Shown here: piece after piece, positions 654 to 49,830 of the stretch
Position numbering within the stretch: the stretch's first letter is position 1
Layout of the letters: the number at the start of each line of letters is the position of its first letter
IMG/VR virus record: IMGVR_UViG_3300022871_000020
Span: 1-62,417 of that record
Direction: 5' to 3' (one strand)
DNA length: 62,417 nt
From: a virus
Notes under the pieces: generated by a model
Seen by the model: the letters and a program-made list of their open reading frames with translations, nothing else
What the model was told of the DNA's origin: nothing
Database searches by the model: none
Made by a program: the position numbers and the translations under genes

Positions 654-1403
654 CTATTTAATATTTAGAGTAATATGTTCTCTGGGAGAATATCTAAATC
701 CATGTTTCAAACAGAATTCAATTGATTGTTTAGCACTATCATTAAATGCATCAAGAAAATTTCTTGGGTGATCAAAATTATTTTGATTTGGAGTAAATGG
801 CATGACACATACTTTTTCTTTTGGAATATTATTCATTATTATAAATGAAAGAATTATATTATCACAATTATTCAAATAGTCTCCATATACAAATTTAACT
901 GTATAATTATTAAATTTTTCGAATTTCATTATTAAGAACTGATCTTTATATATTGAATAAATTTCTTCGATGGATTCAATATTTTCGAGGGATTCAATAT
1001 TTTTATGTGCATCTACATTGAATTTAGGGCTAATATTTAATTGAATTTCATCTAAATCACATTTATTTCGCATATTCCAAAACAAACTACCAAGTGACGT
1101 TCCATTGGTTTCAATCTCAAAATTCATGTTTGATTGAGTTGCAAGAATATCAGTAACCATTTTAATATTTTCATCATATATTGGTTCCCCACCAGTGATT
1201 AATAAAGTGTCTATGTTGGGATATTTATTTCTTAGATCGTTAATTTGATTGGATATTACTTCGTATGATGTTTTCTCTTTCGATAGTGATGCACACTTAG
1301 TATCACAAAATCCACAACACAAATTACATCCATCAAATCGAACTAGTATAACAGGTTTACCAACATTAATTCCTTCACCCTGTATAGTTTGAATGAATTC
1401 CAT
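654..1403 (-). CDS. queE: 7-carboxy-7-deazaguanine synthase (radical SAM)
   Basis: Converts 6-carboxytetrahydropterin to 7-carboxy-7-deazaguanine (CDG), the ring-forming step of 7-deazaguanine synthesis. The 249-aa protein opens with IQGEG, has the radical-SAM cluster motif as C26-x3-C30-x2-C33 and the SAM-binding TGGEP at 70-74, all typical of QueE, at normal family length. ATG start with AAGGAAAA upstream. It lies downstream of the TGT/DpdA-like gene and, with folE2 at 35.4 kb, suggests a DNA base-modification pathway rather than tRNA queuosine. No queD or queC was recognised in the window. Its first 20 nt recur at 1754, upstream of the preceding small gene. Confidence 0.9.
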   Translation of the reverse strand: MEFIQTIQGEGINVGKPVILVRFDGCNLCCGFCDTKCASLSKEKTSYEVISNQINDLRNKYPNIDTLLITGGEPIYDENIKMVTDILATQSNMNFEIETNGTSLGSLFWNMRNKCDLDEIQLNISPKFNVDAHKNIESLENIESIEEIYSIYKDQFLIMKFEKFNNYTVKFVYGDYLNNCDNIILSFIIMNNIPKEKVCVMPFTPNQNNFDHPRNFLDAFNDSAKQSIEFCLKHGFRYSPREHITLNIK

Positions 1404-25212: not shown

Positions 25213-28109
25213 TCATATCTCTCCCTTTTCAATTTTGTCAACTTGACCAGTTTGCCAATGACCCATCCAAATACGTTCATGAATAGATAATTTTTCAATA
25301 TCGACATCAGAAAACGAATTAATGTTTCCTAGCGTTGTTTTATTCGGTTGATATAACGCTCCAAGAGTCGGGCTCAGGTTCATTGCAAGTGTCTTTTCAC
25401 CAAACTTTTTTACTGCTGGTTGATCTGGATCATATCTCCAAAATCTTTTATTGTCTTTATTTTTATTAATAACAAACATATTACATAATAGAATTTCAAT
25501 AAAACTACTATACGGAGTTCCAACAGTCAGAAGATGTGACATGATGTCTTCATAATAAATCACAGGGGATTTTTTGACTTTATTATTAGTTTTTAATATC
25601 TCCTTTACATTGTTCATAATTTCAATTGCATCAATGTTTTTTACTTCCCCAGTGAAATAATCAAAATATGATTTATTATTAATTGATTCTTTAAATCCTT
25701 GAATTTTATCAATATTATTTGGAATCTCTTCTGTATTGAATTCAATTATATATTGTTTTAATTCTGGGTTGTGAATAATATTTGTTAGATGGTTTTGAAT
25801 GAAATCTTTTACTGATTGGTTAATTTCTAGATTGGCTGAACCACTGTGATGGAACGCTTAATGTTCAAAAAGAATCGCTAATTCTTTTCCGGAACTATTT
25901 TTTTGTTCCTGCTCTATATTTCTATAAAGAACGGACTATATTACCATCCTTTTCAAAGGATGTTCTCTACTTCCACTCGCTTGAGTGTACTCCCCATGAC
26001 GGGATAGTCTCTGCACCTTTAATATAAATATTAGCAATATTTATAAAACTTGGCTCAGTATTGTCTTCGTCTTTACACGCTAAGAGATCTACTGAATTCA
26101 AAGAATTTTTCGACTAGGATTACTCCTAGAAGCGACCATTTTCATTAATCGCATTATTAGCTGAGTCAATCTTTCCGAAACAACTTGACCAGAAACAACT
26201 CCAACACACTCTGTAGGTAATTTTCTTGTACCGAAACATTTTCGACATAATTTAAAATTCGGTGTTTGACATGTCATTGGTGATCGTATTAATATTTTCA
26301 AATTAATAAGTGATCTTGCTGTAGGTAGATTAAGAATCTCCCAATCCATTGCTGAATCTTGTGGATCTTTATAATATTTACCAACAAGTGATTTTGCATG
26401 TTTCTCACTGAATATGATAAATTCAATACCATGTTCTGTTCCACAATCTTCTTCGATAATCTCAACTATTCCAAGTGCCATTGTTAACGTTCTTTCGAGA
26501 TAACCACTGAGAGGAGTTTCTGATGCTTTATCAACAAGCAGTTGATTCAATTATATTTCTATAACTGTTGGACTCTATCTTGTAAGAAATAGTGTAATTT
26601 ATTAATTACCCGTCGTAATTCTTTTTCAGTTAATCCTTTTTCTTTTTCAACAATAAGTTTTTCATATAAATATGAAAATTTATAAAATTCAACAGATTTT
26701 TTTATTGATTGTAATTTATTAGTATAAAAAAATGGTAGGACTAATTCTAATTGTTTATCAAAAATCAATACATATTTATTGTCTGTTAATTGTTTAACTT
26801 TACCAATATTTTTAAATCGTTTCTTAATTTTATATAATACTTGAATACTTTGACTGTATATCACTATCCGAAATTTATAACATTTGTGATATTGTTTAAC
26901 TTCAAATATTCCTTTTTCAGAATCAAATAAACCTAATATGTACTGAGGATGCATTTCTTCTTACCTTATCGTATAGTCTCTGAGATTTCTTACTAATGTT
27001 ATATTAATAAGCCTTATCTGCTGATTGCCCAATTCTTTAAATTTTAACATTATAAACCTGTTATAATGTATTAAAGACTCTAAGGGGATTCCAGCATATA
27101 GATAAATTTTAAAAGAGCCTTGTTGTTAACCCTTACGAGAACCTGGAGAACCAAGAAAATAATCCTCGATACTTAAACCTTTCATTAAGTGAGTACAAGT
27201 TGGAGTAGGAACGACAATATTTTCAGTATCTGCAACATAACCTATATTTATACAGGATCGTGCAAGTTGTTGTTTCGACATCCTACTGCCACTTTTATAA
27301 AGACGAAACAAATTTGATTTTGGATCCATTGAAGTAACACAATAATCAGTCAATGTTTCGTTCAAATAGAAACCCAAATACGGATTAAAATGTGGAAGTT
27401 TTTGAAATAATTTTTCAGTTTTATCATCAACAACATTAGCCATTTCACCAACATCTATAGTTGGGTTATGATTAGTTGAAGATATAAAAAAGAACAAACG
27501 TTTACTAAAATCAGTTAATTGGTCATAGAAATTATCTGGATCATATTGATAGAGGATCTCACTAATTTCATTAGATTCATTCTTTGCAACAGTTTTATTA
27601 ATAAGAACTGTATCGAAACCTAACCATTTATTCAATAGACACACACCATAAGTATAATGATTGTCTTTGAATTTAACTGGTTGTTGAAGATGATCGTTCC
27701 AATAATCGAAATCTTCTGGTAATTTTTCTAATTCGTCTAACTCAATTATATCATTTTTCCAACTATCAAAGTCTGGATTAATGTCTTCTGTTAGAATATA
27801 ACAACAATATAATGCTTCATGTCTAACTGTACTAAGCATTTCATTATTTGAATCGTATCTAAATGTGTTCTTTAAGAATGCCTTTTCTTTCATTTCTTTT
27901 AGAGCTTCGACACTATTTATTATATAGATCGCAAGCTCGTCACCATCAAAATCGGCATTAAGGGGAGCTAACATCAATGGTGATAATCCAATTGACAAAT
28001 CATCATCATCAGAAGGTATTATTTCAACACATGGTATTGAATGGCGCCATAGCGAAGGTTGACGGTTAAGATAAGCAAGTTTACTAAGTCGTTTAATTTC
28101 TGGTTTCAT
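25213..28109 (-). CDS. Phage RNA polymerase beta-prime subunit, C-terminal half, three exons
   Basis: Exons 28109-27129, 26538-26148 and 25856-25213 sum to 2016 nt, exactly 672 codons (671 aa). It begins with LAYLNRQPSLWRH (LVNRAPTLHRL) and carries the Mg-binding NADFDGD at 51-57, SGSRMSKQQLA, and the zinc site CQTPNFKLCRKCFG. Splices restore GSRKGLVDKASETPLSGYL (GARKGLADTA..SGYL) and TQLIMRSFHHSG (TQLTMRTFHxGG). ATG with AAAGGAAA. This is the catalytic half; partner of beta-prime N. Confidence 0.9.
25857..26147 (-). mobile_element. Group I intron E in RNAP beta-prime C
   Basis: 291 nt inside TQLIMR/SFHH. P1 pairs exon GCGAT with intron GTCGC (U-G at site); the intron ends in G before CGTTCC. 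Core: ACTGAGCCAAG, GGTGCAGAGACTATCCC, AATATAGTCCG. No ORF. Confidence 0.88.
26539..27128 (-). mobile_element. Group I intron D in RNAP beta-prime C, with LAGLIDADG ORF
   Basis: 590 nt after GSPGSRKG. P1 pairs exon AAGGGT with intron GCTCTT (two wobble pairs); the intron ends in G before CTTGTTGAT. P7 can form from GAGACTAT near 26980 and GATAGAGTC near 26575. It contains the ORF 26559-26954. Confidence 0.85.
26559..26954 (-). CDS. LAGLIDADG homing endonuclease inside intron D
   Basis: 131 aa. One LAGLIDADG motif (YILGLFDSEKGIF) near the N terminus, followed by the alternating basic strands of the family; a single motif implies a homodimer. The ORF fills the intron and its last codons (DRVQQL) overlap the 3' strand of P7, so coding and ribozyme function share sequence. 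It should cut intron-less RNAP alleles at SRKG/LVDK. Confidence 0.75.
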   Translation of the reverse strand: MHPQYILGLFDSEKGIFEVKQYHKCYKFRIVIYSQSIQVLYKIKKRFKNIGKVKQLTDNKYVLIFDKQLELVLPFFYTNKLQSIKKSVEFYKFSYLYEKLIVEKEKGLTEKELRRVINKLHYFLQDRVQQL

Positions 28110-28130
28110 AAATTTCCTTTCTCGAATTAA

Positions 28131-28880
28131 TTATACCAATAATAATGACCCTCCATTATTATAAATAATACTTGCATCTTCGTATGATATATCTAATGGG
28201 ATTACATCCCAATGAGTTTTACCAGTTTTAATATTAGATATAGTCATTGGACAAACATCAAACAGTTCTGATATTCTGAGTTGAGTTAATTTATTTTCTT
28301 TTAATAGTATTTTAATTAAACAAACTTGATTACGAAATAGTTTTAATGGTTTACGTTCAATATCTAATTTAGATAAATCTTCACCAACAGTTGACCATAA
28401 TTCTCCTCTTTTTATATTTGACATTAAAGCTTTACTCATACCATGTTTTTTAGCCACATCTTCTAAGAATACTCCATCTTTAATATCTTGTTTAATTGCA
28501 AGTATTTTTTTATCCGAAAGTTTAATCTTTTCGCTACCCGTTTCTAAATTATCATGATTATTAACAGCATGAGTTGCCCAAGAAATATTACCAATGTAAT
28601 TATCTGCAGGATCTTGATTTGGATAATGACGACATTCATGTCCTTTTGGACGTAAACTAACAAATATTTCTAACATTAAATTATGAATAAAAATCGTTCG
28701 TCTTCCTAAATAATTATACAATGTAACTGCTAAATATCCATCATGATTAACTGCTGGTTTTAACAATTTTTGATTCTTGTATGTATATACTTTTCCATAG
28801 GTACTAACTGTGTACATTGGAAAGTCTGGGTGTATTGCCCATAGTTCAGGTTCTCGTTCTCGTTTAATTTCTGGTTTCAC
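28131..28880 (-). CDS. NUMOD4/HNH homing endonuclease
   Basis: 249 aa. After a first MKPEIKR copied from the RNAP beta-prime C start, it has the NUMOD4 pattern (ELWAIHPDFPMYTVSTYGKV), the HNH pair (FIHNLMLEIFV, ECRHYPNQDPADNYIGNISW) and HTH-like C-terminal repeats. GTG start after AGGAGAG. Lies immediately upstream of beta-prime C, and probably is or was the mobile agent behind the rearranged junction. Confidence 0.78.
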   Translation of the reverse strand: MKPEIKREREPELWAIHPDFPMYTVSTYGKVYTYKNQKLLKPAVNHDGYLAVTLYNYLGRRTIFIHNLMLEIFVSLRPKGHECRHYPNQDPADNYIGNISWATHAVNNHDNLETGSEKIKLSDKKILAIKQDIKDGVFLEDVAKKHGMSKALMSNIKRGELWSTVGEDLSKLDIERKPLKLFRNQVCLIKILLKENKLTQLRISELFDVCPMTISNIKTGKTHWDVIPLDISYEDASIIYNNGGSLLLV

Positions 28881-28892
28881 AAAACTCTCCTA

Positions 28893-29144
28893 TTAAATAC
28901 CAAGTTTTTCCTTAACATCATCAACAGACTTTTTAGTTCCAGCATAAAATCCAAGACCACTTATTGGACCGAACATTCCACCATCAGCAAACAAAATGGA
29001 TCTTTCAATAATAACAGCATTTATCTGTTCGCCATTAAAAATTTTATGATATTGAAGTCCATCCCACACATCAACATAAACCCGTCCACCTTTATTTAAT
29101 TTAATATCAAGGTCATTGTCTTCCGCAATTAATTCTATAGCCAT
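28893..29144 (-). CDS. Small paralog X3
   Basis: 83 aa from ATG 29144 (TAGGAGAAACGATC upstream), one of three homologs here, sharing LIAEDNDLDIKLNKGGR, FNGEQINAVIIE and FYAGTKKSVDDVKEKL. Likely a small beta-sandwich; function unknown. It is set between copies of the RNAP beta-prime gene ends. Confidence 0.6.
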   Translation of the reverse strand: MAIELIAEDNDLDIKLNKGGRVYVDVWDGLQYHKIFNGEQINAVIIERSILFADGGMFGPISGLGFYAGTKKSVDDVKEKLGI

Positions 29145-29164
29145 GATCGTTTCTCCTATTTTAT

Positions 29165-29190
29165 TCTTCACTATAATCATAAAACCATAC
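29165..29190 (-). repeat. Copy of the RNAP beta-prime N 3' end (tail copy)
   Basis: Minus strand GTATGGTTTTATGATTATA repeats the codons VWFYDY that end the beta-prime N gene at about 29815-29835. It stands before paralog X3. Confidence 0.65.
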
Positions 29191-29197
29191 CAAACAT

Positions 29198-29245
29198 TTA
29201 ATTGAGATAAGCAAGCTCACTAAGTCGTTTAATTTCTGGTTTCAC
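29198..29245 (-). repeat. Copy of the RNAP beta-prime C 5' end (head copy)
   Basis: GTG at 29245 with GAGGAGAGTTT upstream opens a 15-codon ORF MKPEIKRLSELAYLN that then stops; the real gene at 28109 starts MKPEIKRLSKLAYLN. A remnant gene start. Confidence 0.7.
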
Positions 29246-29254
29246 AAACTCTCC

Positions 29255-29515
29255 TCATTGTAGTTCAAGTTTTTTCTTAACATCATCAACAGATTTTTTT
29301 GTTCCCATATACACCCCTGCACCAGCCCAAGGACTACCTTTTCCACTCCAAGGATCTCCTATTTGAACATCGCCAAACAAAATAGTATTTTCAATAGCCA
29401 TTGGATTAACTTTTTCATGAAATATAACTTCGTCATTAATTTCAATAGTTACCCAACTATTTTCAGGTACAATGATGTTTGTTCCAGGATCTTCAGCAAT
29501 TAAATTCATTCCCAT
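29255..29515 (-). CDS. Small paralog X2
   Basis: 86 aa, the most diverged of the three X proteins: NLIAEDPGTNIIVPENSWV and ending in VYMGTKKSVDDVKKKL. ATG after GGAGAATTAT. Function unknown. Confidence 0.6.
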   Translation of the reverse strand: MGMNLIAEDPGTNIIVPENSWVTIEINDEVIFHEKVNPMAIENTILFGDVQIGDPWSGKGSPWAGAGVYMGTKKSVDDVKKKLELQ

Positions 29516-29537
29516 AATAATTCTCCATTAAAAACTG

Positions 29538-29789
29538 TTAAATGTCAAGTTTTTTCTTAACACCATCAACAGACTTTTTAGTTCCAGCATAAAACCCAAA
29601 TCCACTTATTGGACCGAACATTCCATTATCAGCAAACAAAATAGAACTTTCAATAATAACAGCGTTTATCTGTTCGCCATTAAAAATTTTATGATTTTGA
29701 TGTCCATCTGACACATCGACATAAATCCGTCCACCTTTATTTAATTTAATATCAAGGTCATTATCTTCAGCAAGTAAATTAAAACTCAT
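29538..29789 (-). CDS. Small paralog X1
   Basis: 83 aa from ATG 29789 (ATAGGAGAATTAAAA upstream), close relative of X3 (NLLAEDNDLDIKLNKGGR). An earlier in-frame ATG lies inside the RNAP tail and lacks an SD. Directly downstream of RNAP beta-prime N. Confidence 0.6.
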   Translation of the reverse strand: MSFNLLAEDNDLDIKLNKGGRIYVDVSDGHQNHKIFNGEQINAVIIESSILFADNGMFGPISGFGFYAGTKKSVDGVKKKLDI

Positions 29790-29808
29790 TTTTAATTCTC
29801 CTATATTA

Positions 29809-30957
29809 TTATGTATAATCATAAAACCATACTAAAAAACTGTCAAATAACTCATCAACTTCATCTGTATTATCAATCTCATTTAACATGTACGTTTCGA
29901 AACATTTAGTTGCTTCATATCCTTTCACTTCAATCAGGTAGTGAAGAAACATAGGTTGCCAAAGCACTTTTAACATCTTCTTACTGACTTTAATTTGATA
30001 GGGTTTTAATGAAGGGTCAACAGTAATAACAGTTCGTCCACTAAATTCTAAAGTTTTACCTAATACACTATTGCGAATTAACCCTGGTTTACCTGACAAA
30101 CTAGTATAAACATACTCATAAATCTGATTAACAAATGACTGATAGTGTGCAGTTTTTGCATCATACTCAGTTAACTGTGTTGGAAATATTTCTTGATCGA
30201 TTAAATTATCTTCAAAACTAATCTTAATTTGTTCTAACCAATCTTGTTCGTCCGTTTTAATATATTGAAGAATTGGAGCATTAATCATTTTAGCATTTAA
30301 TATAGATGTGTATGCTTTATTAATTGGAGGAGTCATAACTTGATCTTTATCGGGATCAAACGAATACATTCTTAAATCTGGAGGAAGTACGGACACAATA
30401 TCAGTAATCCAACCATCGTCAAAAAAGTTAATTGCTTTATCTACTTTTAAATATTCAGCAGCAAATTTCAAACAAATGTAAAGACTATAAATTCCAACAA
30501 CACGAAAAGGAATAATACTATAATTATTCATTCGACTAAGGGTATTTACAATCTTCATAGCTGACGCATCATCTTTAACTGCAAGATATCTTTTAGTATC
30601 TAAATTAACATCTAGTCGGATAGGATTAACAATGTTGTTAGATAGTTTACCAAGATATTTAATGATGTTTTTTTGTTTAGTTGGTTTAATGAATGGAAAC
30701 TCCGTCCTTATCTTTCCAAATTGAGTAGACCTGATACTTGCATCTGTACACATAACTCCACATTTTTCGCATATCTCATCAGTATGAATGACACCAGTTA
30801 ATTCTCCACATATGCATCGATAATTTTGTTTAGGACCAAAAATCTGTTCACTAAACAAACCATTTGGATTTTCTTTTCTTGTTTTGATTGCTCCTATGAA
30901 ATCTCTGTTATGAGTAACAAATCCACCTAGACTTGGATAATCAATAGCATTAGTCAT
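29809..30957 (-). CDS. Phage RNA polymerase beta-prime subunit, N-terminal half
   Basis: 382 aa. GLFSEQIFGPKQNYRCICG and ICEKCGVMC form the beta-prime N-terminal zinc site (C48, C50, C63, C66); later LGKTLEFSGRTVITVDPSL equals the bacterial LGKRVDYSGRSVIVVGP and is followed by the KKM helix. It ends at SFLVWFYDYT, just before the LNRAPTLHR segment that opens the separate C-half gene. ATG start, SD AAGG. Upstream gene is HU-like. Confidence 0.88.
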   Translation of the reverse strand: MTNAIDYPSLGGFVTHNRDFIGAIKTRKENPNGLFSEQIFGPKQNYRCICGELTGVIHTDEICEKCGVMCTDASIRSTQFGKIRTEFPFIKPTKQKNIIKYLGKLSNNIVNPIRLDVNLDTKRYLAVKDDASAMKIVNTLSRMNNYSIIPFRVVGIYSLYICLKFAAEYLKVDKAINFFDDGWITDIVSVLPPDLRMYSFDPDKDQVMTPPINKAYTSILNAKMINAPILQYIKTDEQDWLEQIKISFEDNLIDQEIFPTQLTEYDAKTAHYQSFVNQIYEYVYTSLSGKPGLIRNSVLGKTLEFSGRTVITVDPSLKPYQIKVSKKMLKVLWQPMFLHYLIEVKGYEATKCFETYMLNEIDNTDEVDELFDSFLVWFYDYT

Positions 30958-35349: not shown

Positions 35350-36159
35350 TCACTCCTCTTTAGAAGTTAATCTACAATACGCATTGTGTTGATGAATACT
35401 TTCTTCATTATTTACTTGAATATCAAAATTTTCAATATTATTTAATTTTTCAAATTTATAAGCTAACTCTCTCCCCATATCTTCAACAAACTTAGGATTA
35501 TTATATGCCTCCATAGTAACATGTTTTTCATCAGGTCTCTTTAATATACTATAAACCTGACAACTATAACAACTTTCAATAATATCGACAATATCTTCAA
35601 TCCATAAATACTCTTTTTTAAATTTAACTTCACATTTAACTAATACTTTAGATCGTTGATTATGTGCTCCCTGTTTTTCACTAATCTCCTTTGAACACGG
35701 ACACAAACTAGTACCAGTACTTTCAACACTAATACAAAACTCAACAGAGTCTTTAGTGTTAGTTAAATCAAATACGACATTATAATGAATCAATCCATCT
35801 AATTTACTAACTGGAGATTTCTTATTAATGAAGTAGGGGAAACTATATACAATTTGGCATCGTGTTGCTTCAGATGATATTCGTATATCTTCAGCTATTT
35901 TACAAATTACAGCAGAATTTAAAGGAGCTTCAATATAAGATTGTAAACCAATAGGTAAACGACTCATATTAATACCTTTATTATCACTATTCAAATCAAC
36001 AAAAATATCAATATCTGAAATTGTATGTTGAAATTTATTATCTTTTTGAATAATAAATATTGGTAATTTAAAATTTGTAATTCCTACTCTTTTAATTGGT
36101 ATATTGAACTGTGACTTTGAATTCTGCATATCTGGTAGACCTTGTTTAATATCTTTCAA
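35350..36159 (-). CDS. folE2: GTP cyclohydrolase IB
   Basis: 269 aa. Opens GTP to 7,8-dihydroneopterin triphosphate, first step to folate and 7-deazaguanines. FolE2 hallmark: TSLCPCSKEISE followed by GAHNQRS, with metal-ligand Cys and His, plus SRLPIGLQSYIE upstream. Normal FolE2 length. With queE and the DpdA-like gene it supplies the DNA-modification pathway. Its location 32 kb from those genes is unusual. Confidence 0.9.
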   Translation of the reverse strand: MKDIKQGLPDMQNSKSQFNIPIKRVGITNFKLPIFIIQKDNKFQHTISDIDIFVDLNSDNKGINMSRLPIGLQSYIEAPLNSAVICKIAEDIRISSEATRCQIVYSFPYFINKKSPVSKLDGLIHYNVVFDLTNTKDSVEFCISVESTGTSLCPCSKEISEKQGAHNQRSKVLVKCEVKFKKEYLWIEDIVDIIESCYSCQVYSILKRPDEKHVTMEAYNNPKFVEDMGRELAYKFEKLNNIENFDIQVNNEESIHQHNAYCRLTSKEE

Positions 36160-37220: not shown

Positions 37221-39767
37221 CTACATCAGTTCCTTTTCTAAATTGTTTAAGTATAACTCTCCACAAGCTTGTGAGATTTTCAAACATAATCTCCCTGATA
37301 ATGTTGTAGACATTGCTAATTGTCGATTTGAAAATAAGAAACTTGCCATGCCTGTCAAACCATAACTTGAATTAGCATTAATTTTCATAGATAACTGTCT
37401 ACGATCAAAGAACTGATATTCATTTGATCCGTGAGGAAAAGTATCTCTTTTAGTTTTATACTCACTTCTTAAAGCAAGACGTTCAGTTAAGAAATGGTTT
37501 AATATTCCTTTATGTTTTTCATGTGTTGCAAAAATTGCTCCAGATAAATTAAAACTCAATTGTTTATCAACCAAATATTTTCCAAAATTTACTGAATCAA
37601 CTTTTTTAACACAACAATTATAATCATTTTCATTTTCAACAATAAGTACCCATGGATTTGTTGTTTCATCAAAATTCAATATATAATTATATGCAAATGT
37701 ATGATACTCTGGAACTTTCATTATCTCTGTCAATATATCTAATAATGGGAGTAAATAACTTTTTAATAACAAATATTCATGTTGAGTTGTTGGTGTAAGT
37801 AATTGCTTAATTGGTACTTTAGCATTAAGAATATCTTTTAATAATTTCATAAAGATAATATAAATATACTGTTTATGATTGTTTTTGTTTTGTGGATCAA
37901 GACGTTCAACAGATTTTTTAATTTCGTTAAATATCATTGTTTTTAGTTGTGGAATAATATCTTGATTGTGCTCGATTGCATTACTAACTGTGTTAATAAA
38001 TTTATATGCAACAGGATCAATCACTCGACCAAAATATGAATCGAATGATATGTTCGACTGACGCATCATTGAGGGATACAAGGCAGTATTATGAACTCCA
38101 ATTCCAGAACCAGCAAAGAAACGTTCAGTTTCTTCTACTGTTAAGTCATAGACTTTACCTGTATAATCTATAACTTCTATTGATTTAATTTTTTCTAATA
38201 TAATTTGATTGTTTATCTTAGATCTAACAACAATATAATTGCCAATTTTTAATTCTCCAGCGTTGACCAATTTAATATCATTGATATTATTAGTCAACGA
38301 ACTGAATATACTATGATTGTCAGTTACCGTCACAGCTTCATAACAGTTAGTTAGTAATTTAATTAATTTACCATTCCAATCATGTTCAGTTTTTCCTTTA
38401 ACTCTTTTCCAACACACCTCATTATTTTTATTCCAAGTTAAAGTTTCATCATTTTCTTCCCATTCATAATCACCAACATTTAAAGAATATTTAATATTAT
38501 TTTTACGAATAAATATCTTTTCTTCTGGAGGTAAACTTGCATCCATATCGACTAATATACCATCATTAATAGTAAGAGTCTTGCCGAGTCCTTCTTTGAC
38601 ATAAGCTCCAACAAATCTGCTCATTATTTTACGATATGTCTTCTGGTCTATACTAGTGATATTCCATTTAACGGATTTCTCTTTAGGGCGTTCAATCATG
38701 TCTATTTCTTCTTGACCAATTGAATGTGCCTGTTCCTGTAATAAACCAAACCTCATTCCAAGTGATTTCTTTTTCAATTCATAATTAAACATCGTTGAAA
38801 AGAATGAAGACGACCCAATTAAACTTGCTGTGAATGAAGTCTTCATATCCCGTCTCAATAAGTTATGTAACTCAATATGTTTGAGTTTATCATTTAATTG
38901 CACACAAACAGATACATCTGCAATATTATATTTAAAAAATTCTACTGGTTCTCTTGTATAGAATTGATCGAACGATAGATCTTGATGTTCAATCTTCTTT
39001 ATTCCAAGTTCTTCCTCAGCAATAAAATTAAGGGAGTACTTAGATAAAGACTTGCCGTAATTCAACCCGTTCTCCGAGCGAGGAATATATAATTGTCGAA
39101 TGTCCGCCACAGGATATTCAGCAATTTCAATGTTATTATTAAAACCAAATGATCGAGCTTTAACCACACCAAATTTACTAAGAGTATTAGCAACTTTATC
39201 AATATCATCATTATATAAATATTTCAATCTATAATATATGTACGGTAGATCAAAATTATTAAAATTAAATCCAGACAACACAGTAGGGTCAATTTGATGA
39301 ATCAATCTCCATATATCTTCAAGCATCTTTAATTCTTCATCAACATAAAAAAAGACACGAAGTTTATCGCTCGCTTTCAAATATTTTTCAGCAACTAATT
39401 CTTCTTTGAATTGTTTTTCATATTTACCAGGGTCATTAGTATCGACTAATGAATAATTCTGTGTCATCATAAGCAAACTAAACAAATAATATGTTTGTGA
39501 GTGACTGTCATAAACACAAACTGAATTAATAATTCCTGTCGCTTGCTTGTTACGTAATTTATCAAGTTCGCATTTAAACACCTCGAGATCAATAAACACA
39601 ACTTTTAATTCTTGATCAACATCCAAATTATCGCGTTCACCATAACGAGTATAATGATCGATTGAATAATGATGATCGCTATTTATTTCAGCATTATAGA
39701 ATTGATAATAATTTAATTCACCCTGTTCTAATTTATCAATAACATCGGGTAACTCTAGTTCTACCAT
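37221..39767 (-). CDS. Family B DNA polymerase, N-terminal half, with intein
   Basis: 848 aa precursor. Exonuclease landmarks VFIDLEVF (about 57-64), SGFNFNNFDLPY (about 165-176) and YNIADVSVC (about 280-288). Palm motif A appears as DMDA joined to TALYPSMM once the intein (S411-N560) is removed; motif B is KINANSSYGLTG. The protein stops soon after motif B, and motif C is on the separate upstream gene 41378-42790. So the active enzyme needs two protein-splicing events and assembly of two chains. Confidence 0.88.
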   Translation of the reverse strand: MVELELPDVIDKLEQGELNYYQFYNAEINSDHHYSIDHYTRYGERDNLDVDQELKVVFIDLEVFKCELDKLRNKQATGIINSVCVYDSHSQTYYLFSLLMMTQNYSLVDTNDPGKYEKQFKEELVAEKYLKASDKLRVFFYVDEELKMLEDIWRLIHQIDPTVLSGFNFNNFDLPYIYYRLKYLYNDDIDKVANTLSKFGVVKARSFGFNNNIEIAEYPVADIRQLYIPRSENGLNYGKSLSKYSLNFIAEEELGIKKIEHQDLSFDQFYTREPVEFFKYNIADVSVCVQLNDKLKHIELHNLLRRDMKTSFTASLIGSSSFFSTMFNYELKKKSLGMRFGLLQEQAHSIGQEEIDMIERPKEKSVKWNITSIDQKTYRKIMSRFVGAYVKEGLGKTLTINDGILVDMDASLPPEEKIFIRKNNIKYSLNVGDYEWEENDETLTWNKNNEVCWKRVKGKTEHDWNGKLIKLLTNCYEAVTVTDNHSIFSSLTNNINDIKLVNAGELKIGNYIVVRSKINNQIILEKIKSIEVIDYTGKVYDLTVEETERFFAGSGIGVHNTALYPSMMRQSNISFDSYFGRVIDPVAYKFINTVSNAIEHNQDIIPQLKTMIFNEIKKSVERLDPQNKNNHKQYIYIIFMKLLKDILNAKVPIKQLLTPTTQHEYLLLKSYLLPLLDILTEIMKVPEYHTFAYNYILNFDETTNPWVLIVENENDYNCCVKKVDSVNFGKYLVDKQLSFNLSGAIFATHEKHKGILNHFLTERLALRSEYKTKRDTFPHGSNEYQFFDRRQLSMKINANSSYGLTGMASFLFSNRQLAMSTTLSGRLCLKISQACGELYLNNLEKELM
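38088..38537 (-). mobile_element. Mini-intein in DNA polymerase motif A
   Basis: 150 aa from Ser (SLPPEEKIF) to Asn (GIGVHN) with Thr as +1 residue. Block B TVTDNHSIF and block F-like VYDLTVEETERFFAG are present; no homing endonuclease. Removal joins DMDA to TALYPS, the catalytic DxTALYPS motif. Confidence 0.88.
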
Positions 39768-39811
39768 TTTTTAAATGAACCCTTTGATTAATGTTAAATG
39801 TTAAAATAAAT

Positions 39812-39862
39812 AGGCATCGCCAACAATACATGTGTTCAATATAATGTATTGTGACAATGCCT
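39812..39862 (-). terminator. Hairpin after the HU gene
   Basis: Long imperfect stem AGGCAT...CAATACAT / ATGTATTG...ATGCCT, then AT-rich sequence before the polymerase gene. Confidence 0.6.
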
Positions 39863-39879
39863 TTAATAATCTTTAATCG

Positions 39880-40257
39880 CTATTCATCTTCAACAAGTTC
39901 ATCTTCATCTTCATCGTCGTTATCATTATCAGATACTTCGTCGTTAATATACTTCTTAAATAATTTAGATGGTTTAAATCGAAGAGTCTTTTTCTCAGCT
40001 ACTTCAATAGACTCACCTGTGCTGGGATTTCTACCAGTGAAAGCTTTTTGAATTGCAGGAATAAAACTACCGAACTTTCTAATCTGAACTTCTTTTTCGT
40101 TCTTTACACTATCTTTAATAATTGACAGTACACATTCAATAGCTCTTGTTGATTCTGATTTAGTGAAATTACCTTTTTCGCAAACTAGTTCAATTAGATC
40201 TAGTTTGCCTATAATTTTATTATCAATTTTTTCAATAACAGTACTCTCTTCAGTCAT
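39880..40257 (-). CDS. HU-family DNA-binding protein with acidic tail
   Basis: 125 aa. HU core visible: LIELVCEKGNFTKSESTRAIE, KEVQIRKFGSFIPA, TGRNPSTGESIEVA and TLRFKPSKLFKKYIN, then a 20-residue Asp/Glu tail not found in host HU. May wrap phage DNA or guide topoisomerase. It follows a 388-nt leader full of hairpins. Confidence 0.82.
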   Translation of the reverse strand: MTEESTVIEKIDNKIIGKLDLIELVCEKGNFTKSESTRAIECVLSIIKDSVKNEKEVQIRKFGSFIPAIQKAFTGRNPSTGESIEVAEKKTLRFKPSKLFKKYINDEVSDNDNDDEDEDELVEDE

Positions 40258-40645
40258 TTTTTGGTTTCCTTTTTTTTAAGACTATTTATAAAATTGTTAA
40301 GATAGTAAGCATACCAGCCTCGTTCGATTTACAGGATCAGACAAACTTTTTTAATTACTCAAGGATTTTATAAAATTTTAGATTTGACTTTTAAGATTTG
40401 ATGGTTTAACCTTTAAGTTTTAATCGTTGAATTTTAATCTTTGAAATTTAAACTTTAAATGTCAGGCGCTATAATAGCTCCTTGTAATTAGACTTTATGG
40501 GTCTAATACTAGTAATAATCTAATGATTATTACACCATTTAAGTGTTTTCCAAGTATGAGTTGGAAACTGAAGGGCATTTTTTTGGTCAGCCCTTGAAAG
40601 ACCAGTCTGAATTTTAATCCTCGGTATACTCACTATATTATTTTT
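40258..40645 (-). other. 388-nt non-coding leader with hairpins and AT repeats
   Basis: No gene on either strand. At 40386-40460 a degenerate 13-15 nt unit (TTTGAAATTTAAAC-like) repeats about five times. At 40488-40604 four hairpins follow each other: 40488-40506, 40512-40533 (9-bp perfect), 40545-40568 and 40584-40604. The last competes with AAGGGC (40571-40576) pairing GCCCTT (40590-40595), an attenuator-like choice. Could be a regulatory leader of the HU gene or a replication origin. Confidence 0.45.
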
Positions 40646-41272
40646 TTAATCAGCAATATTTATCAAAGTCCGGGAGTTTGACTCTGAAAGAATAAAATCT
40701 ATGTTTAATTTAAATTCGTTAATTTTGTGTTCAAGGTCGTTGATTTTACCGGTAATGTCAATAGGGTCAATAATTTTTGGAGCATTACGTTTCAAAAATG
40801 GAGCTGAAATGCTTTCCATTTCGTCAGGCTTGATTTTTGATTTATCTTTATTCAGATTCGCCATCAGTAATGTATCTAGTCTTTCATTAACTGATTCCAT
40901 CAAATATTCGTATTTTTCAGTAATCGATGCTTTTTCTCTTCTCAATCGAACAAATAACTGTTCCCACAATATAATAATATTTTTGAAATCAATTGCTTCT
41001 GTCACTGACATTTCTTCTTCATTAATAGTAATTTTAGTCTGTGTGTTCGACAAAATAATCGCTCTTTTAATAACCATTCGTCGATTAGTCAAATCAATAA
41101 TAGACAAGTGTTCTGCCAATGAATATTTTTTAAACTTGTCAACTTCACCAAATCCTGGAATACTGTCTTCCCCTTTCTGGATGATAATCGGTGTATATTC
41201 GTTAGTTTTTTTTGTGATTCGTTTTTCAAGAAGTTTGCATTCGGCGAGTGCTCGGGTAATTGATATTTCCAT
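40646..41272 (-). CDS. DIP1984/septicolysin-like helical protein
   Basis: 208 aa. ITRALAECKLLEKRITKK at the N terminus and long heptad-like helices match small phage proteins of the DUF6847/DIP1984 type, of unknown role. GGAAATTTAAAA before ATG; a promoter-like motif lies 60 nt upstream. Confidence 0.45.
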   Translation of the reverse strand: MEISITRALAECKLLEKRITKKTNEYTPIIIQKGEDSIPGFGEVDKFKKYSLAEHLSIIDLTNRRMVIKRAIILSNTQTKITINEEEMSVTEAIDFKNIIILWEQLFVRLRREKASITEKYEYLMESVNERLDTLLMANLNKDKSKIKPDEMESISAPFLKRNAPKIIDPIDITGKINDLEHKINEFKLNIDFILSESNSRTLINIAD

Positions 41273-41333
41273 TTTTAAATTTCCTTTTTTTTGCTAAATT
41301 TTGAATTTTGAAATTTGAAAATAAAGTGTTATA

Positions 41334-41372
41334 CATTAATAATTTATATATAAAAGTTGATATTATTAAAAA
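41334..41372 (-). promoter_or_regulatory. Bipartite promoter-like motif
   Basis: Minus strand TTTTTAATAATATCA, short spacer, TATATAAATTATTAATG; between the DNA polymerase C-half stop and the 41272 gene. Confidence 0.62.
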
Positions 41373-41377
41373 CCTAT

Positions 41378-42790
41378 TCAACTTTTTTTAAGGAGATCAA
41401 CAACTCTTTCACAAGTCTTATTATAAACTTTACTCCAATGAAGTTTACGATCAATTTTAATTTTAAATATGTTAAATTTTTCTTTTACAAGTTCTGTATT
41501 AAATTCATACGGGAGACATATTCCATTTACATTTTTAAATTCACCAATTGTTACTGGGTGAATATAAACAAATTTAGCAGATGAACTAGGTTCAAATATA
41601 GGTTCATTCATTATATGATTATATAATTTCATTCCACTGATCATATTTTTTAACCGAGCCCATTTCCCTGGAATCCCCACATAATCAGTTTCAAGATTAT
41701 CTACACATTGATTAAATTTAGTATAGAATTTTCCGATTGTGTCGATTAACACTTGTCGTTTATTTTCTGGAAGAATTTCTGCATTCAAAGCAATATTTTC
41801 AATTATTTCTTTTAATAAATCTTGAGTTAATTTTGCAACATTTGATTTGATTACATCTATACCTGTATAGAAAACTTTAGGTTTTTTTAATGGGTTCCCC
41901 TCCTTAATTAACAGTTTGAAAGCGTATCTTTTTTTGGTATCAAGGAACATAATCGATTCCATTAACAACTCTGTTTTAAAGAAAGTTTGATTGTGTTCAG
42001 GTTTAATATTACATCTTGGTAATAAAACATCTTTAGTATAATCAATAATTAAATCATTGATTCCATTCGAAGCTTCAATTGCTTTGTTCCAGAGTTCATC
42101 TGGAGCTAATTGACTTGCATCTTCTTTTGTTGGAATTGTGATGAAGATACTGTCAGTGTTATGAACTACACAAAAATTAGCAATAAAAGTTTGAGTCTGT
42201 GGAATACATAAATCGTACACATAATCATCATAGTCAATTTTGTTAATAATACTTGTTTTCAACGACTTAATATTTTTAAGATTGTCAATTGGTTCTCCCA
42301 AAATTAATAATTCTTTATTATCGTCAATATTAATTATAGGGAGATATTCACATTCTATAGGTTTAATTATATCAAAATCTTTTGTTTTGTTATTGTATTT
42401 TAACAAAGAATGATTATTAGTAATGTCGAGAGTTTTTGTTGGACTTAATGATAATTGAACTAATTTAGTATCTACTTTATGTCTCATAATATATTCAGGA
42501 ACATCAAGAACCATTTTATCAGTTTTAATATCATAAGTTAATATCTTAATTTTATCATCAATAATAAAAATATATTCTTTACCATCTTGATATGTTATTA
42601 TATTACCATAAGATAATAATTCGTCCCACAATTTATCAAATGTTATTGTACAACAACGATTACGATTACTTCTTTTAATAATAGTTTCCGTATATTTAGC
42701 AACACTATCTGAGTACAGCACTTTCTTTAAACGACCTTTAATTTCAACGGTCTTATAAAAGTCTTTTTCTAGAAAATTCTTACTTTGCAT
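41378..42790 (-). CDS. Family B DNA polymerase, C-terminal half, with intein
   Basis: 470 aa precursor. After 28 residues (VLYSD) an intein runs from S29 to N211, and the extein resumes TDSIFITIP; splicing restores the catalytic YSDTDS of motif C. Downstream DTKKRYAFKLL and FYTGIDVIKS are the palm/thumb motifs. It completes the N-half encoded at 37221-39767, four genes downstream. Overlap-free spacing of four bases from the SF2 helicase gene. Confidence 0.87.
   Translation of the reverse strand: MQSKNFLEKDFYKTVEIKGRLKKVLYSDSVAKYTETIIKRSNRNRCCTITFDKLWDELLSYGNIITYQDGKEYIFIIDDKIKILTYDIKTDKMVLDVPEYIMRHKVDTKLVQLSLSPTKTLDITNNHSLLKYNNKTKDFDIIKPIECEYLPIINIDDNKELLILGEPIDNLKNIKSLKTSIINKIDYDDYVYDLCIPQTQTFIANFCVVHNTDSIFITIPTKEDASQLAPDELWNKAIEASNGINDLIIDYTKDVLLPRCNIKPEHNQTFFKTELLMESIMFLDTKKRYAFKLLIKEGNPLKKPKVFYTGIDVIKSNVAKLTQDLLKEIIENIALNAEILPENKRQVLIDTIGKFYTKFNQCVDNLETDYVGIPGKWARLKNMISGMKLYNHIMNEPIFEPSSSAKFVYIHPVTIGEFKNVNGICLPYEFNTELVKEKFNIFKIKIDRKLHWSKVYNKTCERVVDLLKKS
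42158..42706 (-). mobile_element. Mini-intein in DNA polymerase motif C
   Basis: 183 aa: SVAKYTETIIK start, block B DITNNHSLL, block F/G YVYDLCIPQTQTFIANFCVVHN, Thr +1. No endonuclease domain. It interrupts YSD/TDS, the two catalytic Asp. Confidence 0.9.
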
Positions 42791-46498: not shown

Positions 46499-48811
46499 TT
46501 ATTTAAGTGGGTTAGGACTTTTATTAGTATCAAGCACCTTGCTCAATACTGTATTGAATGTGAATTTTGGGATTGTCATAATTTGTTTTTTCAATTCCGT
46601 ATTCACAATTACATCTAAAGAATTATTTAATTTTTCTTTTGTGTCAGGCATAGTCACAACATATTCCATGTTGTTCCTAATACATAACTCAAGTTGGTCA
46701 GGATTCATTTCTCCTAACCCTTTAAACCTGGTAATGTGATGACCAGCATATGCTGGTTGTTGAGCTTCTTCGTGTGAATACAATAATTTATATTCATTTT
46801 TTAATTGTACACCAAACAAAGGCGGCAATACTACTGATAAATTTCCGTCTTCGATATAATCTCTTAAGAATCTATAAATTACTAGAATCGCCAAGACACT
46901 AATATGGAGACCATCTGAATTATGTATTATAACTCCGTGTGGACCAATTCCAAAATTATTATTATCTTCAACTTCAAGATCAAACACTTCATCATATTTA
47001 TATGGGATCTGTTCAATCTTTTTAACTTTAACTCCATAAAACCCTGGTAATATATCAATAACAGAAAACTTATTTATTATTCTATCATTGATTTTAGGAA
47101 TCAAAAAGAAATCAGTTCTAATATTAATTGTAGTTGGTGATTTTTCAACTACTCTGTTTTGAATTGAATCAAACACATAAACAACATGGTCATCGGTGAA
47201 TTCTTCCGAATAATTGCCTTCATATGTCATTTTCCATATAGTTTTTTTATCATATGGATGAGAAATTACGTTTAATATCTTTTTAAACTCATGACTGCCA
47301 GTTTTTTTATTCAATGATGATATATAACCAATATTTTTCTTATTCTTAAGATTATAAATATGATCTCTTTGAACTAACCAATTATTATCATAATAATATA
47401 CTAAACTTTCAGCAGATACACTATCAGCATCCGAAATTATCTTGATATGCTTATAACGACGGTTACCGACGGCTCCACAAGCTTCTATCAAATCAGTAAT
47501 TTCTCTATTATTACCAATCTTCTCCATAGTAGCTTTCTGAACGTTTAACACTTTCCCACGAAGGGGGAAAATTGCTTCGTTTTGTACATTTCTAATTTGT
47601 TTCAGTGGACCCAAAGCGGATTCACCTTCAACTATGTACAATGTTTCTCCAGGAGTGTCAATACAGTCCCGAAGTTTGTTTTCTGCCGAAATAATTTTCG
47701 ACTTTTTAAACTTCCCTTTAAATTTCTTTTTTAATAATTTTTCAAGATTACTTTGAATAATATTCAGAGTATCTTGATCTAAAAACCAATCGACCTGGCT
47801 CTGTAATGAATTAATCATTTCAGTAACCCTCAATGTCATCCGTACTTTTGTTTGAGAGTCGAATTTAGGTTCGGGAACAGTCAGACTAATATAACAATTT
47901 AATCCATTTAATAATAGTTTTGGATTAACTCCATTGGTCATCTTACCCAACTTGATTATAATTGATTTTTTTAATAAAGTTAGAAATGTAGTTAGAAATG
48001 TTCCTTCACAATGTCTTAGATTGACATCGCAGAGAATATTTGAATGGTTATCTTCACAATAATTCAAATATAATTCAATTTTTTTATTTTCAGCTTGAAC
48101 AATTTCTAACTTTTTGAAATCTTTTTTAATATTAAGTATATATTTAACATACTCATAAAAAGACCTTTTGGTTAATTGTTTTCCATTGAAATATAAATCA
48201 GATGAATTATATCTAGCTTGAGCTAGCATAAGTCGTTTGACTATACTTTCAAGATTCATTTCAATACTATCGAAATGTTTCTCATAAGGTTGAAATCCTA
48301 TACAGGTAGACCAAGAATCAATATTCTCAGAATCCACATAAGTATTTCTTGATTGTAATACAGCATCGACAAATTGATATTCATGAACAGTATTTCGATC
48401 ATCACGATCTCGTACTTTCACAATCATCCAATTTGATAACGCATTAACCACAACCATTCCAACGCCATGCATACCGATAAGGATTTTGTAATCGTCATTA
48501 TTAAACTTAGACCCAGAATGAGTTTCAGTACATAACAATTCGATAGAATCTCTAATGTTTCCATTAGCATCTTTCATTTGATATGACTTAATTCCTCTTC
48601 CATTGTCTTGCACCCAATACGCACCATCTACAATATTTAATTGAAATAAGTTTGCAAATCCATTACTAACTTCATCAAAGGAGTTATCAATTACTTCTGT
48701 TAGTAATTGTGTTGGTGTGTCTGTGTCTCCAATATACATACCTGGACGAATCCTGATAGCTTCAATTGGAGTTAGAGCTGTGTAAAGCTCTTTTGCACTT
48801 TGATTTGTCAC
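46499..48811 (-). CDS. Type II DNA topoisomerase ATPase subunit (GyrB/gp39-like), with intein
   Basis: 770 aa precursor. GHKL ATPase: EVIDNSFDEV, VQDNGRGI, GMHGVGMVVVNALS; TOPRIM: VEGESALGPL and ISDAD joined to SDGLHIS after the intein leaves, then FKGLGEMNPDQL. Start GTG 48811, with AAAAGGAGAC six bases before; the frame is open further upstream without an SD. Partner of the GyrA-like subunit at 55.3 kb. Promoter-like site upstream. Confidence 0.9.
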   Translation of the reverse strand: MTNQSAKELYTALTPIEAIRIRPGMYIGDTDTPTQLLTEVIDNSFDEVSNGFANLFQLNIVDGAYWVQDNGRGIKSYQMKDANGNIRDSIELLCTETHSGSKFNNDDYKILIGMHGVGMVVVNALSNWMIVKVRDRDDRNTVHEYQFVDAVLQSRNTYVDSENIDSWSTCIGFQPYEKHFDSIEMNLESIVKRLMLAQARYNSSDLYFNGKQLTKRSFYEYVKYILNIKKDFKKLEIVQAENKKIELYLNYCEDNHSNILCDVNLRHCEGTFLTTFLTLLKKSIIIKLGKMTNGVNPKLLLNGLNCYISLTVPEPKFDSQTKVRMTLRVTEMINSLQSQVDWFLDQDTLNIIQSNLEKLLKKKFKGKFKKSKIISAENKLRDCIDTPGETLYIVEGESALGPLKQIRNVQNEAIFPLRGKVLNVQKATMEKIGNNREITDLIEACGAVGNRRYKHIKIISDADSVSAESLVYYYDNNWLVQRDHIYNLKNKKNIGYISSLNKKTGSHEFKKILNVISHPYDKKTIWKMTYEGNYSEEFTDDHVVYVFDSIQNRVVEKSPTTINIRTDFFLIPKINDRIINKFSVIDILPGFYGVKVKKIEQIPYKYDEVFDLEVEDNNNFGIGPHGVIIHNSDGLHISVLAILVIYRFLRDYIEDGNLSVVLPPLFGVQLKNEYKLLYSHEEAQQPAYAGHHITRFKGLGEMNPDQLELCIRNNMEYVVTMPDTKEKLNNSLDVIVNTELKKQIMTIPKFTFNTVLSKVLDTNKSPNPLK
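46919..47422 (-). mobile_element. Mini-intein in GyrB TOPRIM motif
   Basis: 168 aa from SVSAESLVYY to GVIIHN, Ser +1. Block B EFTDDHVVYVF, block F EVFDLEVEDNNNFGIG. No endonuclease. Inserted in the metal-binding DAD/xDG. Confidence 0.9.
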
Positions 48812-48939: not shown

Positions 48940-49830
48940 TTAGATAACAGTATTGGATATGATCATAGGAAAAATAAATATCTTTTTATAAAGATCTGGA
49001 TTTACGGAAACGTTTAAGTTGAAATTAACATATTTTCCTTCATAATTCATTATTTTTCTATCGACTATATAATAGTCAGTTAAATATTTTTGTAGATTAT
49101 TGTGTTTGAGTATTTTAAAAAAAGTACTCGAATATATTTTATTAATATGTGTAATATCATACTCATTTTTTAATATGATATTGTACATTATTTTTTTTAA
49201 TTCTTTAGCAATATATTTATGTTGCCCTTTCACTACAAAGCTGTCTATATCTAAATTTTTACCCAATAAGAATGACGTGCGATTACATCGAATATATTTA
49301 GAATAGTAATCAATATGGAAAGAGAAATTGTTTTTCACAATATATTGTGTGAATTTATTTTCTGAATAATATATATTGTTCAATCGGTCTATAGTTTGTT
49401 TAGAGCAACCTATCAGACAACCGTCTTTCTTTAATTCGAAGATATCTATTTGTGATTTTTCAAGTTCATTATCTGTGTCAAATATTATTCCAAGAATAAT
49501 TATTTTACACATCCTATTCAATTGTCTTAATGCTTCTCCTTTTAAAGTTGTTGCTATTATTATGTTCTTCGATTTCTTATTCGAAGCATTATTGACAGCA
49601 TTTATAAATTCTGTATTTGAGTAAAGTACTTGACATAATGTAGGGAATGCACTTTTAATATCAATATCAATAATATAATTAGTATTATTTCCGATTGCAT
49701 TAACTATGTTGTTTTGACTATCTGCCATATACCATGAAATTTTATTTCCTATCGAACAAAGTTCTGAATACGTTGGAGAAGGAGTAATTTCATTAAAATA
49801 TAATTTTGACAACTCATCATAAAAAGACAT
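48940..49830 (-). CDS. Unknown protein with a DIKSAFP motif
   Basis: 296 aa. IIDIDIKSAFPTL resembles the aspartate-containing motif A of DNA or RNA polymerases (DxxSAFP/DxxSLYP), and later FELKKDGCLIG. No second catalytic motif is clear, so a polymerase-like role is only a suggestion. ATG after TGGAGTATATTT. It is divergently transcribed from the plus-strand cluster. Confidence 0.4.
   Translation of the reverse strand: MSFYDELSKLYFNEITPSPTYSELCSIGNKISWYMADSQNNIVNAIGNNTNYIIDIDIKSAFPTLCQVLYSNTEFINAVNNASNKKSKNIIIATTLKGEALRQLNRMCKIIILGIIFDTDNELEKSQIDIFELKKDGCLIGCSKQTIDRLNNIYYSENKFTQYIVKNNFSFHIDYYSKYIRCNRTSFLLGKNLDIDSFVVKGQHKYIAKELKKIMYNIILKNEYDITHINKIYSSTFFKILKHNNLQKYLTDYYIVDRKIMNYEGKYVNFNLNVSVNPDLYKKIFIFPMIISNTVI

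What the first reader, a model, noticed from the sequence alone, without database searches (positions are those of the whole stretch)
37221..42790. DNA polymerase split in two genes, each with an intein in an active-site motif
Exonuclease, motif A and motif B are in 37221-39767; motif C and thumb in 41378-42790, encoded upstream with other genes between. Motif A (DxTALYPS) and motif C (YSDTDS) are each interrupted by an endonuclease-free intein. Function thus needs two protein-splicing reactions plus assembly of two chains. The split point between motifs B and C may be a relic of a third insertion.
Basis: partly seen in the sequence, partly recalled or inferred. Interest (0 to 1): 0.7.

Follow-up and report, generated by a model that had tools for sequence, protein, structure and literature searches.

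The report
Two-piece phage polymerase with two inteins
A virus of bacteria encodes its DNA-copying enzyme as two separate proteins whose genes lie in swapped order, and each protein must first cut a small self-splicing element out of its own active site; two related viruses share the split, one with no element at either site and one with larger, still endonuclease-bearing versions.

Summary
Confirmed, with one part of the reading rejected. ORFs 37221-39767 and 41378-42790 (minus strand) together make one T4 gp43-type family B polymerase. Exonuclease, motif A and motif B lie in the first; motif C, KKRYA and thumb in the second. The C-terminal gene is transcribed first. Each half carries an endonuclease-free cis mini-intein with a complete splicing centre: 150 aa at DMDA|TALYPS and 183 aa at YSD|TDS. 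Two independent viral contigs keep the same split and the same swapped order. One (L014, about 45% identity) has neither intein, which shows the exact empty sites. The other (L135, about 52-67%) has full-size inteins (368 and 385 aa) at both sites, plus two probable introns. So the split is older than the present mini-inteins, which look like endonuclease-deleted descendants of full inteins: empty, full and mini states of the homing cycle at two sites of one enzyme. Both halves and the inteins show purifying selection. No split-intein fragment or pol relic sits at the break, so the 'third insertion relic' idea is unsupported. Split gp43 and phage PolB inteins are known (44RR/25, MIJ3/PA5oct, SCTP-2). 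The B-C split, swapped order and motif-A intein look new. Splicing and assembly are inferred.

The parts
37221..39767 (-). polB N-half gene (848 aa precursor): shortened N-terminal domain, 3'-5' exonuclease, palm motif A, fingers with motif B; ends ...SQACGELYLNNLEKELM
   Evidence: AlphaFold model best matches RB69 gp43, Foldseek E 2e-15
38088..38537 (-). mini-intein 1 (150 aa) in motif A, DMDA|SLPPEEK...GIGVHN|TALYPS
   Evidence: PF14890 over cut-off; limits; empty in L014, full-size 368 aa in L135 at the same site
41378..42790 (-). polB C-half gene (470 aa precursor): short N-terminal segment, motif C, KKRYA, thumb, C-terminal tail; transcribed upstream of the N-half
   Evidence: AlphaFold model best matches RB69 gp43, Foldseek E 4e-8
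42158..42706 (-). mini-intein 2 (183 aa) in motif C (pol-c position), YSD|SVAKYTE...CVVHN|TDSIF
   Evidence: PF14890 over cut-off; limits; empty in L014; full-size 385 aa with LAGLIDADG_3 in L135
39880..40257 (-). HU-like DNA-binding protein gene between the halves (also between them in L135, not in L014)
40646..41272 (-). 208-aa gene (phrog_1491, 'tail fiber') between the halves; absent from this place in L135 and L014
42795..44153 (-). SF2 (phrog_16) helicase gene directly upstream of the C-half; conserved neighbour in L135 and L014 (in L014 a RecJ-like gene lies between it and the C-half)
46919..47422 (-). third mini-intein (168 aa) in the topoisomerase II large subunit, SDAD|SVSAE...VIIHN|SDGLH; empty in L014 and L135

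Best explanation
This is the replicative family B (T4 gp43-type) DNA polymerase of an uncultured tailed phage, encoded as two separate subunits by non-collinear genes. The N-subunit brings the exonuclease, catalytic motif A and the fingers. The C-subunit brings the motif C hairpin and the thumb. The break falls in the variable palm loop between motifs B and C, so no conserved residue is lost. Each subunit is made as a precursor, cuts out a class-1 mini-intein in cis (Ser1, TxxH, His-Asn at the end, Thr+1), and the two spliced chains then assemble without being joined covalently. The split and swapped order are ancestral in this lineage. They probably arose by tandem duplication with reciprocal loss of halves, or by translocation. 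Full-size inteins at both sites were probably present in the common ancestor with L135, and in the window's lineage both lost their endonuclease and survive as mini-inteins. Shown: the sequence anatomy, conserved split and order, same insertion sites in three allelic states, purifying selection. Inferred: splicing activity, assembly, being the main replicase, the direction of intein change and the rearrangement route.
For: Spliced and joined halves align end to end with intact gp43 and keep the catalytic residues. Modelled separately, each half has RB69 gp43 as top structural match. L014 keeps the same break and C-before-N order with uninterrupted motifs. L135 keeps the same break and order, with HU between, and full inteins at the same two sites (385 aa with LAGLIDADG_3 E 7e-12; 368 aa). 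pN is well below pS in both halves, as in neighbouring genes. The inteins are about 54% identical between window and L135, close to the exteins (52-67%), with pN below pS, which fits vertical descent under constraint. Split gp43 of Aeromonas phage 25 co-purifies and is active (PMC2988022, citing Petrov 2010).
Against: No biochemistry. The AlphaFold models are weak overall (mean pLDDT 57 and 56) and the inteins are not folded with confidence. All three contigs are linear fragments, so a second polymerase cannot be excluded. Only three viruses show this arrangement. Synonymous sites are close to saturation, so selection ratios are rough.
Confidence: 0.85

Rival explanations
1. The halves and their swapped order are an assembly or annotation artefact, or the remains of a broken gene.
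For: The contig is metagenomic, and a swapped order can come from misassembly.
Against: Two other contigs from different metagenomes (about 45% and about 60% identity) have the same break and order with different genes between. Each half has its own start and stop, and both are under purifying selection.
Confidence: 0.02
2. The two chains are joined covalently by protein trans-splicing, so that the mature enzyme is one chain, as in Nanoarchaeum equitans or as proposed for the MIJ3/PA5oct fractured polymerase.
For: Split inteins at motif C do this in N. equitans (PMC549080, PMC4104785) and are proposed in MIJ3 (PMC6892783).
Against: The N-half ends in polymerase sequence and the C-half begins in polymerase sequence; no intein fragment lies at either end. 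Each intein is complete within one half. L014, with the same split, has no intein hit at all.
Confidence: 0.03
3. The split is the scar of a third mobile element (intein or intron with homing endonuclease) at the B-C position, later lost.
For: This lineage is rich in mobile elements: three inteins and three group I introns in the window, inteins and probable introns in L135. Split polymerases elsewhere often have a homing endonuclease at the break.
Against: No remnant at the break in any of three viruses; the order is swapped, which insertion alone does not give; the break is about 12 residues before motif C in gp43 numbering (Muldoon 606 versus 618), not at an insertion site that I know.
Confidence: 0.15
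4. The inteins serve the phage as a timing switch: slow splicing delays polymerase activation.
For: Both sit in the two metal-binding motifs and keep a constrained splicing domain after losing the endonuclease.
Against: L014 does without them. Persistence in an essential motif is expected anyway, because only exact removal is tolerated.
Confidence: 0.1

Closest known systems
Split gp43 of Aeromonas phages 44RR2.8t and 25 (genes 43A/43B)
   Same: T4-type polymerase in two genes; the phage 25 halves co-purify and are active (PMC2988022)
   Different: Break in the fingers between motifs A and B (510/511 on Muldoon numbering), halves adjacent and in order in 44RR, no intein
MIJ3/PA5oct-type PolB (also Paride, Klebsiella KP13-7)
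   Same: Jumbo-phage gp43-type polymerase that is both split and intein-bearing (PMC6892783)
   Different: There the break is inside a split intein at motif C (DTD|S) with a homing endonuclease gene between collinear halves; here both inteins are complete in cis, the break is elsewhere and the order is swapped
Salicola phage SCTP-2 PolB mini-intein
   Same: Endonuclease-free intein at the same YxD|TDS position
   Different: Single intact gene, one intein; the inteins are only distantly alike
Archaeal and Mimivirus PolB inteins (pol-c allele) and split archaeal PolB
   Same: Motif C insertion YGD|TDS with Ser1, Asn end and Thr+1 (PMC549080); split PolB in Methanobacteriales and N. equitans (PMC4104785)
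   Different: Different polymerase lineage; there the splits were explained by inteins
Yersinia phage phiR1-37 g170/g167
   Same: Family B polymerase in separate, non-collinear genes
   Different: Halves on opposite strands, break before motif B; a group I intron match overlaps the 3' end of g167; no intein seen in the pieces read

Membership tests
T4 gp43-type family B DNA polymerase | Exo I-III residues, motif A DxxxLYPS, motif B KxxxNSxYG, motif C DTDS, KKRY | tested here: met
   Invariant catalytic residues in the alignment with five gp43-type polymerases
T4 gp43-type family B DNA polymerase | Full T4-like N-terminal domain before Exo I | tested here: not met
   59 residues before D60 against about 112 in Muldoon; the same short start in L014 and L135
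T4 gp43-type family B DNA polymerase | Polymerase and exonuclease activity | not testable with these tools
   Needs protein
Class-1 cis intein | Ser/Cys1, TxxH block B, block F, His-Asn end, Cys/Ser/Thr+1, exact empty site in a homologue | tested here: met
   Both inteins: S1, TDNH and TNNH, HN|T; empty sites in L014
Class-1 cis intein | Splicing activity | not testable with these tools
   Only constraint on the splicing domain shown
pol-c intein allele | Insertion at YxD|TDS | tested here: met
   C-half intein; same place as Mimivirus (PMC549080) and SCTP-2
pol-b (motif A) archaeal intein allele | Insertion at the archaeal motif A site | not tested
   From memory the archaeal site is one residue further on; not checked against sequence
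Fractured gene with split intein (MIJ3, N. equitans type) | Intein N- and C-fragments at the facing ends of the two halves | tested here: not met
   Both inteins are internal and complete
Split gp43 of the 44RR/25 type | Halves in collinear order with the break in the fingers | tested here: not met
   C-half first; break in the B-C loop

The most novel reading that the evidence does not exclude
A lineage of phages whose only replicase is a permanent two-subunit gp43 from swapped genes, in which both catalytic metal sites were independently colonised by inteins that passed through the empty, full and mini states of the homing cycle, with motif A in one relative additionally cut by an intron a few codons from the intein.
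Probability: 0.55. Interest if true: 0.7.

Novelty: new variant of a known kind. Interest (0 to 1): 0.58.

Why it matters
It gives a natural heterodimeric family B polymerase cut through the palm next to the active site, useful for asking how such an enzyme assembles. It also offers matched empty, endonuclease-bearing and mini alleles at two sites of one essential enzyme, in which the homing-cycle model and the question whether degenerate inteins affect their host can be tested directly.

Tried and rejected
Single-sequence searches of IMG/VR with either half found nothing; an alignment with two gp43 proteins found L014, and an alignment of the neighbouring UDG gene found L135. A broad six-sequence alignment had no searchable stretch. 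A bacterial/archaeal genome scan found no relative. A restricted DNA pattern for HN|TALYP in IMG/VR gave 26 hits, none a polymerase; it forces some codons, so it does not prove absence. Polymerase relics between the genes: none significant. Rfam found no group I intron in L135, although both interruptions there have the U|...G| borders typical of group I. Trans-splicing and misassembly were rejected (see rivals).

Full report
OBSERVATION. The window is a 62,417-bp linear IMG/VR virus record, probably a fragment. The 848-aa ORF carries the family B exonuclease, the motif A/B part of the polymerase domain and an intein splicing domain; the 470-aa ORF carries an intein splicing domain and the C-terminal part of a phage polymerase. 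Removing residues 411-560 and 29-211 and joining the halves gives a chain of 985 residues that aligns over its length with the Mel-JY01, XacN1, HATV-2, Muldoon and SCTP-2 polymerases at 21-26% identity, with the catalytic residues invariant. The break falls in the loop between motif B (Muldoon 561) and motif C (618); the L014 N-half ends at about 606. AlphaFold models of each half are only moderate (mean pLDDT 57 and 56), but each has RB69 gp43 as best match in the PDB.

INTEINS. Intein 1 (150 aa) sits at DMDA|TALYPS, intein 2 (183 aa) at YSD|TDS. Both have Ser1, TxxH (TDNH, TNNH), block F, terminal His-Asn and Thr+1. Neither shows an endonuclease domain. Their nearest solved relatives differ (MJ0781 intein 2e-13; Pho RadA intein 7e-8), and they share 29% identity over 113 residues, so they are not recent copies of each other. 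A third mini-intein interrupts the topoisomerase II large subunit.

RELATIVES. L014 (IMGVR_UViG_3300033146_000601, 65.6 kb): C-half 291 aa (HILYSDTDSIF) and N-half 696 aa (VDSDATALYPS), in the order UDG, helicase, RecJ-like, C-half, two genes, N-half; no intein hit in the whole record. L135 (IMGVR_UViG_3300035039_000082, 109 kb): C-half 675 aa with a 385-aa intein at the same motif C site, including LAGLIDADG_3 (E 7e-12), then HU, then an N-half in three pieces with a 368-aa intein at the same motif A site. The second intein has the look of a LAGLIDADG endonuclease by eye (GFWLSDGW, GMMFADGT), but no Pfam endonuclease match. Two interruptions of 1065 and 677 nt in the L135 N-half can be joined to give ESG-LNYGKK and TALYP-S-MMMQNN with U|...G| borders. 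They are probably introns; the first holds an HNH ORF. Rfam does not recognise them.

HISTORY. Identity makes L014 the likely outgroup (44-48% to the window, against 52-67% between window and L135 exteins). The split and the C-before-N order are shared by all three and therefore ancestral. Inteins at both sites are shared by window and L135 at about the extein level of identity, which fits presence in their common ancestor. The alignment shows that the window's copies lack the roughly 200-residue endonuclease region. Loss in L014 instead of gain in the other two is possible. How the order became swapped is inference: tandem duplication followed by loss of the first N-half and the second C-half is the simplest route; no relic was found.

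SELECTION. Window versus L014: pN 0.38/pS 0.60 (N-half), 0.37/0.65 (C-half), like the neighbouring helicase, UDG and FolE2 genes. Window versus L135: exteins dN/dS 0.13-0.31; intein N-parts 0.38 and 0.56, C-parts 0.19 and 0.10. Synonymous sites are near saturation, so the ratios are rough, but both halves and both splicing domains look constrained.

FUNCTION. Most likely both precursors splice in cis and the two chains assemble non-covalently into the replicase. The precedent is phage 25 gp43A/B, which co-purify and are active (PMC2988022). No other family B polymerase was found in the three contigs, but all may be incomplete.

KNOWN AND NEW. Split gp43 genes are recurrent: 44RR, Atu_ph07, SH-Ab 15599 with an HNH-like gene between, phiR1-37 on opposite strands. 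A split PolB with a split intein is published for MIJ3 (PMC6892783). Pol-c inteins are known in Mimivirus (PMC549080) and SCTP-2. Other phage contigs carry inteins two residues further on, at YSDTD|S or YGDTD|S-type positions (L094, L096). I found no precedent for the B-C break with swapped gene order, for the motif-A intein in a gp43-type polymerase, or for complete inteins in both halves. The literature search was limited to open-access papers and the pattern scan was narrow, so these are statements about what I could see.

Noticed in passing
window 46919-47422 (-): Third mini-intein, in the topoisomerase II large subunit (SDAD|...|SDGLH); both relatives have the empty site.
   Followed up: partly
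L135 15524-20481: N-half of the relative's polymerase has a full intein in motif A and, five to six codons later, a probable intron within the Ser codon of TALYPS, plus another probable intron with an HNH ORF near residue 235.
   Followed up: partly
window 25216-30957 (-): RNA polymerase beta'-like gene in several pieces with an HNH-like ORF (28131-28880) and a possible second endonuclease ORF (26559-26954); in the L014 record the matching part lies in one 1021-aa frame.
   Followed up: partly
window 14756-16916 (-): Three group I introns (Rfam) in a gene whose middle piece matches a single 656-aa frame in the L014 record.
   Followed up: partly
window 25970-26113 (-): Stretch translating to SWGVHSSEWK, a string also seen (as LWGVHSSEWK) inside the group I intron at 16686-16916: perhaps a further intron that Rfam misses.
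   Followed up: no
window 48940-49830 (-): 296-aa protein with polymerase-like strings (DIDIKSAFPT, FDTDN), 60% identical in L135, no significant family hit; function unknown.
   Followed up: partly
window 40258-40645: 388-nt non-coding stretch beside the 208-aa phrog_1491 gene; both absent in L135, where C-half and HU are nearly adjacent.
   Followed up: no
L096 7659-12967: Polymerase gene of a 204-kb contig broken at GDTD|S by intein fragments with an endonuclease-like ORF between: a fractured gene of the MIJ3 type.
   Followed up: no
L009 2712-5217: Listeria phage LPJP1 polymerase seems interrupted just before motif C, between two ORFs annotated as hypothetical.
   Followed up: no
window 654-1403 and 35350-36159 (-): QueE-like radical SAM ORF and FolE2 gene, which may point to 7-deazaguanine synthesis by the phage.
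   Followed up: no
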